Assembly (NCBI RefSeq): GCF_000025565.1
Contig: NC_014121.1
Span: 4,860,216 to 4,924,215 of the forward strand
Direction: 5' to 3'
Source: Enterobacter cloacae subsp. cloacae ATCC 13047
GTDB taxonomy: Bacteria > Pseudomonadota > Gammaproteobacteria > Enterobacterales > Enterobacteriaceae
Length of the DNA stretch: 64,000 nucleotides
Below, one piece after another: positions 53,209 to 56,134 of the stretch. The notes below the pieces were generated by a model. It saw nothing but the letters and a program-made list of their open reading frames with translations, was not told the origin of the DNA and searched no databases. A program made the position numbers and the translations under genes. Numbering within the stretch: the stretch's first letter is position 1; every line of letters begins with the position of its first letter.

Positions 53209-53802
53209 ATGAGTGAAATCATTTCTGCGGCGGTTTTATTGATCCTGATAATGGATCCACTGGGAAACCTGCCGATTTTCATGTCGGTGCTGAAGCACAC
53301 CGAACCCAAGCGCCGCCGGGCGATCATGATCCGCGAGCTGCTCATCGCCCTGCTGGTGATGTTTATCTTCCTGTTTGCTGGCGAAAAAATTCTCGCTTTC
53401 CTGAATCTGCGTGCCGAAACGGTCTCCATTTCCGGCGGAATAATTCTGTTCCTGATTGCCATCAAGATGATTTTCCCGAGCGCGGAAGGCAGTAGCAGCG
53501 GACTGCCTGCGGGTGAAGAGCCGTTTATCGTACCGCTGGCGATCCCGCTGGTCGCCGGGCCGACCATTCTGGCCACATTGATGCTGCTGTCGCATCAGTA
53601 TCCCAACCAGATGAGCCATCTGGTGATTGCTTTGCTGATTGCCTGGGGCGGAACGTTCATCATTCTGCTGCAGTCGTCGCTATTCCTGCGCCTGCTGGGC
53701 GAAAAAGGGGTCAATGCGCTGGAACGTTTGATGGGGCTGATTCTGGTGATGATGGCGACGCAGATGTTCCTGGACGGGATACGGGCGTGGATGAAGGGCT
53801 AG
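53209..53802 (+). CDS. yhgN: MarC-family inner-membrane protein YhgN
   Basis: A 197-residue MarC/YhgN-type membrane protein with six hydrophobic segments. The start MSEIISAAVLLILIMDPLGNLP and the repeat-like AGPTILATLMLL segment are characteristic of the family, where a P-G-N type motif occurs in both halves. The function is unknown; claims linking MarC proteins to multidrug resistance have not held up. It is divergent from asd and followed by a terminator and then the accessory island. Confidence 0.93.
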   Translation: MSEIISAAVLLILIMDPLGNLPIFMSVLKHTEPKRRRAIMIRELLIALLVMFIFLFAGEKILAFLNLRAETVSISGGIILFLIAIKMIFPSAEGSSSGLPAGEEPFIVPLAIPLVAGPTILATLMLLSHQYPNQMSHLVIALLIAWGGTFIILLQSSLFLRLLGEKGVNALERLMGLILVMMATQMFLDGIRAWMKG

Positions 53803-53810
53803 GTCAAAGC

Positions 53811-53836
53811 AAAATGGCCACTGCGTGGCCATTTTT
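53811..53836 (+). terminator. yhgN intrinsic terminator
   Basis: AAAATGGCCAC and GTGGCCATTTTT form a stem with a TGC loop directly after the yhgN stop. It separates yhgN from the island that follows. Confidence 0.88.
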
Positions 53837-53846
53837 AGTGTTTGCT

Positions 53847-53882
53847 CCCTCTCCCGTGGGAGAGGGCCGGGGTGAGGGCAAC
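53847..53882. repeat. CCCTCTCCC/GGGAGAGGG intergenic palindrome
   Basis: Copy CCCTCTCCCGTGGGAGAGGG followed by CCGGGGTGAGGGCAACAGG. It lies on the left boundary of the island; another copy (54744-54785) lies on the right. Confidence 0.85.
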
Positions 53883-54022
53883 AGGCCGCACTCCTCAAAA
53901 ATAATATTTCGTTTTGCGAGCCGCCTTCCAGAGCCTCTCTTGCCACCCGATCTTCAAAGCAGTATCTTCTTGCCGCGCCTGCAAAATCAGGCGTCAGGGT
54001 TGGTCCTCTGTTATCCTCATCC

Positions 54023-54199
54023 GTGATAAAATTTCTTTATCGCGTAGTCAGTTACACCTTAATGGTGGGCTGGACGGTGGCGCCGCAAGGCGCGCCGGTA
54101 GCTGATGAGGCCGGTAGGACCAACTCCGTTCAGTCCGCCACCAGTGAGGTTGGTCCCTCCTGTGGCGGTCCATTTTACGCATCAGAGGCGGTCTTATGA
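54023..54199 (+). CDS. Ash-like small protein (P4-type satellite leader frame)
   Basis: A short frame starting with GTG at 54023 (or ATG at 54062) contains MVGWTVAPQGAPVADEAG and NSVQSATSEVG, the pattern of the small conserved region of phage Ash proteins (P4-type and other enterobacterial prophages, from memory). It has no Shine-Dalgarno sequence at either start. The frame stays open upstream to 53876. Its stop overlaps the next gene as ATGA (54196-54199). The conservation may come from the RNA in this segment (see the C4/CI-like entry) and not from a protein, so translation is uncertain. Confidence 0.42.
   Translation: MIKFLYRVVSYTLMVGWTVAPQGAPVADEAGRTNSVQSATSEVGPSCGGPFYASEAVL
54055..54185 (+). 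ncRNA. C4/CI-like antisense immunity RNA
   Basis: Three mutually related segments occur in the order expected of P4 CI or P1 C4 RNA loci: GGACGGTGGCG (54072-54082), its partial complement CCGCCACC (54135-54142), and GTGGCGG (54162-54168), which is again complementary to the middle one. The middle segment can thus pair with either flank. GGACCAAC (54117-54124) and GTTGGTCC (54149-54156) form a perfect 8-bp stem around the middle segment. It overlaps the ash-like frame and precedes a small gene, as in such systems. Ends are approximate, and no covariance search was run. Confidence 0.58.
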
Positions 54200-54642
54200 C
54201 TACTACCCTTAGCTTTTCTCACTCCTTATTCACCACACCGTTCGATCACACCACCGACTTCACCGAGCAGGCAGACAACTGCGCGCGGTTTGTCGACGTG
54301 CTGGTTGAATGTGACGATCCAACCCAGAAGATGGCGCTGTGTGGACGACTTTCCGCCTGCCTCACCCTGCTTCAGCCCACGCTGCTTGAACCTGTGCCAG
54401 AATATTTAAAAGCCAGCCTGACGGTGGATGACCTGCCGTTGGACGTGCCGGTATTCGAACCGGAAGTTGATCAGTTAGGGCGATATTGCCAGCTGTTAAC
54501 GCAAATGCTGTTAGCGCATTCGCTGTCAGAAAGCGATGAGAGAGTGGCGGGAGATCTGTTGCAGGAGTTGGTGCGATTTTTCAGCGATACGCTAAAAGCG
54601 CCGCGCTGGCTGCGCACAACGGAAGGCACAGTGCTGCTGTAA
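54196..54642 (+). CDS. hypothetical protein of a P4-type satellite remnant
   Basis: A 148-residue, acidic, mainly helical protein starting MTTTLSFSHSLFTTPFDHTT. It has no signal peptide or membrane segment. LCGRLSACLTLLQPTLLEP and a C-terminal TLKAPRWLRTTEGTVLL are the most distinctive parts. I recall similar proteins next to ash in P4-like satellites, but cannot name the family. AGAGG lies about 8 bp before the ATG, which overlaps the stop of the ash-like frame, so coupling is likely. No integrase, primase or att site is found nearby. It is absent from the K-12 yhgN-gntU gap. Confidence 0.75.
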   Translation: MTTTLSFSHSLFTTPFDHTTDFTEQADNCARFVDVLVECDDPTQKMALCGRLSACLTLLQPTLLEPVPEYLKASLTVDDLPLDVPVFEPEVDQLGRYCQLLTQMLLAHSLSESDERVAGDLLQELVRFFSDTLKAPRWLRTTEGTVLL

Positions 54643-54645
54643 AAA

Positions 54646-54724
54646 AGCCGGGTGGCGCTTGCGCTTACCCGGCCTACGGGAACTGAGTTTTTTGTAGGTC
54701 GGGTAAGGCGAAGCCGCCACCCGA
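54646..54724. repeat. paired REP/BIME-like element
   Basis: Two opposite REP-like units: GCCGGGTGGCGCTTGCGCTTACCCGGC and GTCGGGTAAGGCGAAGCCGCCACCCGAC (outline), with a T-rich linker GAGTTTTTTGTAGG. The left unit follows the stop of the 148-residue gene directly and, with AAAAAA before it, may stop transcription. Confidence 0.85.
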
Positions 54725-54743
54725 CAAAATAAGATCTCTGCGG

Positions 54744-54785
54744 CCTGATGCCCTCACCCCACCCCTCTCCCACAGGGAGAGGGAG
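54744..54785. repeat. CCCTCTCCC/GGGAGAGGG intergenic palindrome
   Basis: Copy GCCTGATGCCCTCACCCCAC followed by CCCTCTCCCACAGGGAGAGGG (the latter in outline), just before the gntU stop. Confidence 0.85.
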
Positions 54786-54793
54786 AAAACCAG

Positions 54794-56134
54794 TTAGCTC
54801 AGCAGCGTAAACGCAATCATCCCGACAATCGCACCCGTGGTGCCGAGGATAGTTTCCATCAGCGTCCAGGTTTTCAGGGTTTGCGCTTCGGTCGCACCGG
54901 TAAATTTACCGAACAGCCAGAAGCCCGCATCGTTCACGTGCGACACCACAATCGAACCACCCGCGATACAGATAGACAGCGCCGCCATCTGCGCACCGGA
55001 GTAGTTCAGCTGTTCAATCACCGGCATCACCAGGCCAACAGCCGTTAAACAGGCAACGGTCGCGGAGCCCTGAATGATACGCACCGCCGCCGCCAGCACA
55101 AAGCAGGTGACCGCGATGGGCAGTCCCATTCCGGTCAGCGCTTCACCCAGCGCCGGACCGACGCCTGAATCCACCAGCACCTGCTTGAACACGCCACCCG
55201 CACCGATCACCAGCAGGATAATGCCCGCTGGCTGCAGCGCAGCACCGCAGATTTCCATCACGCGGTCTTTCGGCATCCCCTGACGCATCGCCAGGCCATA
55301 AATCGCCACCAGACACGCCACCAGAATTGCCGTGAACGGGTGACCGATAAATTCGAACCATTCGTACGCGGTAGAGCCCACCGGTACAAAGCGCGCGGCA
55401 ATGGTTTTCAGACCCACCAGCACCAGCGGCAGCAGGATCAGAGACAGGCTGAAGCCGAAGGACGGCATTTTACCTTCGCCCAGGTGCGGCTCGGTAATAT
55501 CATCAGGAATATGCAGTTCAACGTAGCGGCTGATGAAATTGCCCCACAGCGGACCGGCGATAATCATTCCCGGGATTGCCGCGCACAGGCCAATCAGGAT
55601 CATCCAGCCAAAATCGGCGTGCATCTGGGAAGCCAGCAGCATCGGTGCCGGTCCCGGCAGCAGAAACGCCGCGGCTGCCGCCACGCCCGCAAACAGCGGA
55701 ATAACCAGCTTCACAAGGTTAGTACCGGTATGGCGCGCCATGGAGAACGCCACGCTAATTAGCAGCACCACGGCCACTTCAAAGAACAACGGCAGCGCGC
55801 AGATCAGACCGGCCAGGCCAATTGCATAGTGTGCACGACTGTGACCAAACGATTTCAGCATCTTGACGGCAATCTGGTCGACCGCGCCCGTCTCATGCAG
55901 GATCTTGCCAAACATCGCGCCCAGCGCGACCACAATTGCCAGGAAGCCCAGTGTGCCCCCCATCCCTTTTTCCATCGTCGCAGCGATCTTGTCGAGCGGC
56001 ATACCGGAAAAGAGACCTGCACCAATAGAAACCACCATCAAAGCAACAAAAGCATGCATACGCGCTTTCATCACTAAAAACAGCAGCAGCAATACCGAAC
56101 CCACTGCTGTCAAAACTAGCGTTAATGTACTCAA
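54794..56134 (-). CDS. gntU: low-affinity gluconate transporter
   Basis: A GntP-family permease of 446 residues, the length of E. coli GntU, with about 12-14 membrane segments. Family motifs: ALGAMFGKILHETGAVDQI, LLPGPAPMLLASQ, VVSHVNDAGFWLFGKF. It follows gntK with a 3-bp gap, the gntRKU order of E. coli. It is paralogous to gntT (29229-30545); the two probably differ in affinity and regulation. No promoter is visible between gntK and gntU, so it depends on the gntK (or gntR) promoter. Confidence 0.95.
   Translation of the reverse strand: MSTLTLVLTAVGSVLLLLFLVMKARMHAFVALMVVSIGAGLFSGMPLDKIAATMEKGMGGTLGFLAIVVALGAMFGKILHETGAVDQIAVKMLKSFGHSRAHYAIGLAGLICALPLFFEVAVVLLISVAFSMARHTGTNLVKLVIPLFAGVAAAAAFLLPGPAPMLLASQMHADFGWMILIGLCAAIPGMIIAGPLWGNFISRYVELHIPDDITEPHLGEGKMPSFGFSLSLILLPLVLVGLKTIAARFVPVGSTAYEWFEFIGHPFTAILVACLVAIYGLAMRQGMPKDRVMEICGAALQPAGIILLVIGAGGVFKQVLVDSGVGPALGEALTGMGLPIAVTCFVLAAAVRIIQGSATVACLTAVGLVMPVIEQLNYSGAQMAALSICIAGGSIVVSHVNDAGFWLFGKFTGATEAQTLKTWTLMETILGTTGAIVGMIAFTLLS

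What the first reader, a model, noticed from the sequence alone, without database searches (positions are those of the whole stretch)
53883..54642. Orphan P4-type satellite immunity module between yhgN and gntU
Between two core genes lie an ash-like frame (MVGWTVAPQGAPVA ... SATSEVG) and a coupled 148-residue gene of a kind I associate with P4-like satellites. No integrase, primase, AlpA or att site is near. The segment is bordered on both sides by the recurrent CCCTCTCCC palindrome (53847 and 54744). Either it is the decayed remnant of a satellite, or an immunity/defence cassette kept after loss of the rest; the intact coupled frames favour retention.
Basis: partly seen in the sequence, partly recalled or inferred. 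Interest (0 to 1): 0.78.

Follow-up and report, generated by a model that had tools for sequence, protein, structure and literature searches.

The report
Antisense-RNA-silenced orphan gene of phage ancestry
Between two ordinary metabolic genes sits a small self-silencing unit of a kind known from phages and their satellites: a short antisense RNA with matching target sites on both sides of it, in front of one conserved gene of unknown function; similar units are scattered through related bacteria, so this looks like a maintained, RNA-guarded gene rather than a dead phage fragment.

Summary
The 'ash-like frame' overlaps a C4 antisense RNA (Rfam RF01695, 71 bits, cut-off 45), the RNA class of P1/P7 immunity, behind an isrK/seqA-like leader and a TTGCCA-17-TATCTT promoter. 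Leader and C4 share a 7-nt complementary contact, and a second copy of the target lies between C4 and the 148-residue gene. Over 60 cassettes the pairing is kept through ten different heptamers, with the second copy exact in 59. The ash frame is not conserved (meets the gene start in 2 of 60). The protein has no named family, is under purifying selection (dN/dS 0.09-0.18) and models as a four-helix bundle. In 36 genomes of the genus 71 of 114 listed C4 RNAs precede a family member. Relatives occur in E. coli islands and, without a detected C4, in prophages. The yhgN-gntU site is one old, often lost location (at least 16 of 60 species). Best reading: a self-silencing C4 unit driving a new effector or regulator where satellites carry Kil/Icd and phages antirepressors. 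The RNA circuit rests on covariation; the protein's job is inferred.

The parts
53912..53931 (+). 20-nt element upstream of the promoter, shared by many cassettes, function unknown
   Evidence: at most 5 mismatches in 42 of 76 places, 0 of 76 shuffled; motif chosen post hoc and many places are orthologues
53940..53968 (+). sigma-70-like promoter TTGCCA-17-TATCTT
   Evidence: TTGnnn-17-TA(T/G)nnT in 47 of 60 cassettes, shuffled expectation 2.4 (spacings 15-19 allowed)
53962..54014 (+). leader matching c4-a1b1 (27 bits, below cut-off) and, at 53975-54038, isrK (38 bits, below cut-off); seqA-like
54000..54006 (+). target a1, TTGGTCC
   Evidence: perfect complement of the C4 heptamer a'
54015..54021 (+). 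target b1, CCTCATC
   Evidence: perfect complement of the C4 heptamer b'
54022..54044 (+). leader hairpin (terminator-like with T-runs in relatives; no T-run here)
54058..54145 (+). C4 antisense RNA (RF01695); b' at 54104-54110, a' at 54117-54123
   Evidence: 71.3 bits, cut-off 45, whole model
54135..54168 (+). hairpin holding target a2 (TTGGTCC, 54150-54156); seqC-like
   Evidence: exact second target in 59 of 60 cassettes
54180..54191 (+). partial target b2 (CATC) joined to the Shine-Dalgarno-like stretch AGAGGCGG
   Evidence: sequence reading
54023..54199 (+). 58-codon 'ash-like' frame, judged incidental to the C4 RNA
54196..54642 (+). 148-residue protein gene, no named family; predicted four-helix bundle with C-terminal beta hairpin
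53847..53866 (.). CCCTCTCCC palindrome, dispersed repeat, not counted as part of the cassette
54763..54783 (.). CCCTCTCCC palindrome, dispersed repeat, inverted relative to the first

Best explanation
This is a self-silencing C4-type antisense RNA unit that controls one conserved chromosomal gene. Transcription from 53940-53968 makes a leader with targets a1/b1, then the C4 RNA, then a second target a2 with part of b2 at the ribosome-binding site, then the 148-residue gene. By analogy with P1/P7 C4 and P4 CI, C4 is cut out of the transcript, pairs with a1/b1 to favour early termination and with a2/b2 to block translation, so the gene is normally off and is released when C4 is titrated or falls (inferred). 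That the pairing matters is shown by covariation. The gene sits in the slot that holds Kil/Icd-like frames in satellites and antirepressor-like frames in phages. Its product is a small helical protein without a recognised catalytic fold and probably acts by binding a partner: most likely an effector or regulator that acts against, or in answer to, an incoming or induced phage or satellite (inferred, about 45%). The unit is of mobile-element ancestry but has been kept at yhgN-gntU in four genera. The confidence given is for the RNA unit, not for the protein's role.
For: C4 over its Rfam cut-off with complete model coverage; leader hits to isrK and c4-a1b1, both below cut-off. Contact a: 54 of 60 cassettes perfect at fixed columns against a shuffled mean of 13.4 (largest 23 in 2000); the other six are misaligned there and show a perfect 7-nt pairing; ten heptamers in all. 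Contact b: 49 of 60 perfect with G-U allowed, shuffled mean 9.8 (largest 19). Second target: exact 7-mer in 59 of 60, 6 nt in one; never 7 for heptamers of other classes. Folding z-score -5.5. C4 found upstream in 62 of 76 places examined, usually ending about 54 nt before the start codon. dN/dS against the window gene 0.09-0.16 in nine congeneric comparisons (dS 0.43-1.0) and 0.10-0.18 in seven more distant ones where dS is saturated. 71 of 114 C4 RNAs listed in 36 genomes of the genus precede a family match. Between yhgN and gntU in three further genera. Same layout as Gifsy-1 isrK-orf45-anrP and P4 seqA-CI-seqC (PMC4825925, passages); C4 cut by RNase P, b' loop covering the RBS and a' giving specificity in P1/P7 (PMC5320573, passages).
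Against: No expression data. In the window b2 is degenerate and the leader hairpin has no T-run; isrK and a1b1 scores are below cut-off. Three orthologues at this site (L019, L021, L023) lack C4 but keep target and gene, and no C4 of that address was found among the family-linked C4s of those genomes or the three other listed ones, so silencing is not indispensable. Of 41 resolved relatives 22 lack the gene at the site and 5 have fragments; of 15 aligned genes two have no ATG at the usual start. Cassettes within one genome are no more different in address than expected (same a in 15 of 99 pairs, shuffled 14.9). No defence-family match and no informative fold match, so the role of the protein rests on context.
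Confidence: 0.8

Rival explanations
1. Antirepressor-like regulator: the protein, like AnrP or Ant, acts on a repressor or regulator of other prophages or islands and helps to induce them; C4 keeps it off.
For: In viral contigs the frames behind C4 look to me like antirepressors or ash/Icd-like frames by their N-termini, and in this genome one C4 stands in front of a frame that I read as antirepressor-like. In four of six E. coli islands looked at the gene overlaps an annotated HTH gene near integrases; three HTH proteins tested match HTH_35. Small helical protein.
Against: No similarity to antirepressor families. The window unit has no HTH neighbour and no prophage beside it. None of the 79 frames compared behind viral C4 units matches the family.
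Confidence: 0.25
2. Growth inhibitor held by an antisense RNA, working like a type I toxin-antitoxin pair or an abortive-infection device: the gene stands where P4 Kil and P1 Icd stand (their names and roles recalled).
For: Position and similar first codons to the frames behind C4 in two co-resident P4-like elements. In E. coli the unit neighbours type I restriction, a UG5-nitrilase reverse transcriptase, AbiE, NACHT and HEPN genes in the islands looked at.
Against: C4-less copies at the same site remain open and under constraint, which would be costly for a strong toxin. No defence family match. Not a short hydrophobic peptide.
Confidence: 0.25
3. Immunity in trans only: the host keeps C4 because it silences incoming satellites or phages with matching targets; the gene is secondary.
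For: P4 CI and P1/P7 C4 act in immunity (PMC4825925, PMC5320573, passages). Three cassette heptamers also occur in the sampled viral C4 units (TTGGAAC, TTGGTCT, TTAGCCT).
Against: The window's class gave 0 hits in the viral collection with the exact leader pattern used; the main viral class TTGGCGT (45 of 82 sampled) is absent from the 60 cassettes. The protein is conserved even where C4 is lost.
Confidence: 0.12
4. Decaying remnant of an ancient satellite or island without present function.
For: Repeated absence and truncation at the site; two of 15 aligned genes without the usual ATG; the paralogue at L047 departs from the family after about 70 codons and runs into what I read as the dispersed repeat.
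Against: dN/dS about 0.15 and covariation of the RNA contacts need continuing selection over the lineages compared.
Confidence: 0.1

Closest known systems
C4 antisense RNA of phages P1/P7 (Rfam RF01695) with ant/icd
   Same: C4 model match over cut-off; a'/b' contacts; targets before C4 and again near the RBS of the controlled gene
   Different: controlled gene is a 148-residue protein without a match to antirepressor families; chromosomal, in several copies, outside a prophage
P4 satellite immunity region (seqA-CI-seqC, kil)
   Same: leader, processed RNA and second target in the same order; co-resident P4-like elements share the arrangement and similar first codons
   Different: no integrase, primase or AlpA frame seen here; the Kil slot holds another protein
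Gifsy-1 isrK-orf45(STnc1160)-anrP
   Same: isrK-like leader, RNA cut from the transcript, downstream controlled gene; in the window also the AUGA overlap
   Different: the ash/orf45-like frame is not conserved over cassettes; the protein is not AnrP
Acinetobacter baumannii Group 1 sRNAs (PMC5320573)
   Same: many chromosomal C4-type RNAs in one genome
   Different: described there as sRNAs whose targets are unsettled; here C4 has cis targets and a conserved protein gene behind it

Membership tests
C4 antisense RNA (RF01695) | sequence and structure match above the curated cut-off | tested here: met
   71.3 bits, cut-off 45, positions 1-87 of 87
C4 antisense RNA (RF01695) | complementarity of a'/b' to upstream a1/b1, kept by covariation | tested here: met
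C4 antisense RNA (RF01695) | second target near the RBS of the downstream gene | tested here: met
   a2 exact in 59 of 60; b2 only partial in the window (sequence reading)
C4 antisense RNA (RF01695) | processing to a ~77-80 nt RNA by RNase P | not testable with these tools
   a GGW start as reported for the cut site (PMC5320573) is present at 54064 by sequence reading only
P4-like satellite | integrase, alpha primase, AlpA/Vis, att site | tested here: not met
   no such frame by reading of 51.5-57 kb, no direct repeat of 12 nt or more in 53790-54830; compare L044/L045
Phage_ASH (PF10554) | score above the curated cut-off and a conserved reading frame | tested here: not met
   22.8 bits, cut-off 26
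Phage antirepressor behind C4 (Ant, AnrP) | antirepressor protein family match | tested here: not met
   no such family for the 148-residue protein; function not tested
Type I toxin-antitoxin system | toxicity of the protein relieved by the RNA | not testable with these tools
   needs an experiment
Known anti-phage defence systems (PADLOC) | profile match | tested here: not met
   0 families for the four members of the family given
Four-helix-bundle proteins of known function | fold match standing clear of unrelated bundles | tested here: inconclusive

The most novel reading that the evidence does not exclude
Enterobacteriaceae carry a dispersed repertoire of RNA-addressed tripwires: each C4 unit keeps a four-helix effector off with its own two-part address, and an invading or induced element whose seqA/IsrK-type RNA matches the address titrates the C4 and releases the effector. 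Phage immunity RNA would thus have been turned into a host sensor with at least ten address classes.
Probability: 0.13. Interest if true: 0.88.

Novelty: new variant of a known kind. Interest (0 to 1): 0.6.

Why it matters
C4/CI RNAs are known as immunity switches of P1, P7, P4 and Gifsy-like phages. Here the same switch is cis-coupled to an unnamed, conserved protein in chromosomes of a bacterial family (42 of 154 genera sampled), one to several per genome, and in E. coli in islands next to known defence genes. That gives a concrete, testable target for what orphan C4 RNAs do, a question left open for the C4-type sRNAs of Acinetobacter (PMC5320573, passages), and suggests why annotation reports 'ash' frames where the conserved object is an RNA.

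Tried and rejected

Counting limits: the 60 cassettes are 62 with a C4 hit minus L035 (degenerate) and L089 (same as L083); many are orthologues (19 loci cluster at one site), so they are not independent. The 76 places are 87 tblastn places less ten duplicates or partial repeats of the own genome and L094, and include short fragments (L043, L050, L051). For dN/dS I used 16 relatives; L022 and the truncated L024 and L033 were left out, and 5 of 6 extra loci failed my frame picker: four because the cassette is inverted there, L161 because its frame is longer than the limit set. At the yhgN-gntU site 19 of 60 genomes were unresolved because gntU lay outside the stretch fetched. One search scored only 82 candidates per genome, so its C4 list may be incomplete.

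Papers: passages of PMC4825925, PMC12197685, PMC11773190, PMC2864571 and PMC5320573 were read; others only as search listings. I do not claim that this family behind C4 is absent from print; searches were in one open-access library. The names thrW, Kil, Icd, Ner, P2-like and P4-like are recalled or my reading unless a call is named.

Full report
What is in the window. The gap between yhgN (53209-53802, +) and gntU (54794-56134, -) holds a 148-codon gene (54196-54642, +) preceded by a 58-codon frame (54023-54199). The 58-codon frame resembles Phage_ASH only below the cut-off and some PHROGs annotated as transcriptional regulators. A search with Rfam models shows why: 54058-54145 is a complete C4 antisense RNA (71.3 bits, cut-off 45), and the leader before it resembles isrK and the a1b1 target of C4 (both below cut-off). 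The 148-residue protein matches no Pfam, PHROG, NCBIfam or PADLOC family (one Pfam hit with E 0.22).

The RNA circuit. Over 60 cassettes from this genus, other genera, E. coli, Salmonella and plasmids, the leader carries a heptamer complementary to C4: 54 of 60 perfect at fixed alignment columns, against 13.4 on average and 23 at most when C4s are dealt out anew; the six exceptions are alignment register shifts with perfect pairings listed. Ten heptamers occur (TTAGCCT, TTGGAAC, TTGGTCC, TTGACCT, TTGGTCT, TTGGCAT, TTAGCAT, GTAGGAA, TTAGCAG, TTGACAG), each with the matching C4. A second contact is perfect in 49 of 60 (G-U allowed), shuffled mean 9.8. A second copy of the first target lies between C4 and the start codon in 59 of 60 exactly and in one over 6 nt; heptamers of other classes never occur there in full. 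In the window: a1 54000-54006 and a2 54150-54156 (TTGGTCC), b1 54015-54021, b' 54104-54110, a' 54117-54123. b2 is only partial, abutting the Shine-Dalgarno-like stretch. The region 53965-54200 folds 25.7 kcal/mol better than shuffles on average (z -5.5). A TTGnnn-17-TA(T/G)nnT promoter stands in front in 47 of 60 (expected 2.4). This is the order seqA-CI-seqC of P4 and isrK-orf45-anrP of Gifsy-1, where isrK in trans raises anrP translation and an ~80-nt RNA is cut from orf45 (PMC4825925, passages), and the a'/b' roles agree with those summarised for P1/P7 C4 (PMC5320573, passages). Cleavage, termination and translational block are inferred for the window.

The ash frame is incidental. Read from the ATG at the C4 5' end, the frame overlaps or abuts the gene start in 2 of 60 cassettes, ends before position -12 in 40, runs past the start in 8, is fused in frame in 2, and has no such ATG in 8. 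Orthologues at the same site (L018, L024, L033) stop after 8 codons.

Relatives. In this genome there are 7 C4 RNAs over cut-off: three in surroundings I read as phage or P4-like (L044, L045, L046) and four in front of the protein family (window, L047-L049). L047 is broken. All 36 genomes of the genus examined, own included, have at least one family match (some only fragments), and 0 of 24 genomes of other families of the order; 77 of 295 genomes of the family sample have one (own and two congeners included). In 36 genomes of the genus 71 of 114 listed C4 RNAs precede a family match, and 65 of 84 family matches of 110 residues or more have a listed C4 in front. In E. coli, 1090 of 5426 genomes hold at least 80% of one 701-bp E. 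coli cassette stretch. Of eight hits looked at, two hold only fragments; two lie at tRNA-Thr/proA, beside type I restriction or a UG5-nitrilase reverse transcriptase with AbiE; four lie at tRNA-Asn islands with T6SS, Rhs, NACHT or HEPN genes, there followed by an overlapping HTH gene. In viral contigs 34 loci were found: one with C4 beside an invertase-like frame and tail genes (L095) and 33 of a third subfamily without a C4 by my profile; in the two of these whose neighbourhood was listed (L098, L105; my reading) and in a Pantoea plasmid (annotated) it lies beside an ogr-like gene, and five such loci searched with Rfam gave no C4. The phage collection had one match in 50,697 records, a 1.5-kb contig with C4; the plasmid collection seven records.

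The site. Among 60 genomes of the genus, all with yhgN, 41 gaps were resolved: 14 with a full or nearly full gene, 5 with fragments, 16 with a gap of 57-328 bp and no gene, 6 longer without the gene; of 19 unresolved one shows a full gene, and G005 has one by coordinates. So at least 16 of 60 keep it. The 15 aligned genes contain no stop; two (L140, L151) have no ATG at the usual start; four (L140, L178, L185, L187) are inverted relative to yhgN, which the inverted repeat copies on both sides might allow. Five loci of three other genera have the gene between yhgN and gntU too (L052-L055, L064). Some empty gaps retain a repeat like the one that follows the gene, a weak sign of loss. dN/dS against the window gene is 0.09-0.18 in 16 comparisons, seven of them at saturated dS; median of 109 pairs 0.15, range 0.04-0.35. 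At this one site the address is TTGGTCC in some species and TTAGCCT in others, with leader, C4 and second target changed together; three species lack C4 but keep target and gene.

What the protein may do. AlphaFold2 gives a confident model (mean pLDDT 87.7): helices 22-38, 42-64, 91-107, 112-133 and two C-terminal strands. Matches are generic bundles. In the two co-resident P4-like elements the same target-RBS stretch is followed by a 64-67 residue frame beginning MATI.., as 15 of the longer family frames do, so the family occupies the Kil/Icd slot. In a sample of 82 viral leader units, 79 of 81 with C4 carry the cognate pairing and none of the 79 frames compared behind them matches the family; their N-termini look to me like antirepressors or ash/Icd-like frames. 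I therefore read the protein as an effector or regulator kept off by C4. Which of the two, and what releases it, is open.

Against the bolder readings: addresses within a genome are not more different than chance; the window's leader pattern has no exact match in the viral collection; C4 loss is tolerated.

Verdict. The finding is real and more specific than reported: a maintained, C4-controlled orphan gene of mobile-element ancestry, a new variant of a known regulatory kind. The genus is taken as Enterobacter from the closest named records, not from a label.

Noticed in passing
window 53912-53931: A 20-nt element (TTTTGCGAGGCGGCTTCCAG, 2 mismatches) lies upstream of the promoter in many cassettes, in either orientation, and was not found near C4 of the two co-resident P4-like elements; operator or border unknown.
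   Followed up: partly
L140, L178, L185, L187: At the yhgN-gntU site the gene is inverted relative to yhgN in 4 of 15 aligned copies; in the window the unit is bracketed by inverted copies of the dispersed repeat.
   Followed up: partly
L019, L021, L023, L038: Alleles without C4 that keep the target and the gene start; L038 looks like a deletion between the two target copies.
   Followed up: partly
L047 5239-6039: Paralogue in the same genome departing from the family after about 70 codons, where I read the dispersed repeat.
   Followed up: no
L083, L089: E. coli members lie next to a 1069-residue UG5-nitrilase reverse transcriptase (DRT) both in a 35-kb plasmid with tail-fibre and invertase genes and at tRNA-Thr/proA.
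   Followed up: partly
L096-L128: A third, C4-less subfamily (176-182 residues in those listed) in 33 viral contigs; beside an ogr-like gene in the two looked at.
   Followed up: partly
window, 19 places: CCCTCTCCC half-palindromes, 19 against 0.32 expected: a dispersed repeat family of this genome.
   Followed up: no
L256-L335: Sampled viral C4 units are dominated by one address (TTGGCGT, 45 of 82), which is absent from the 60 cassettes.
   Followed up: no
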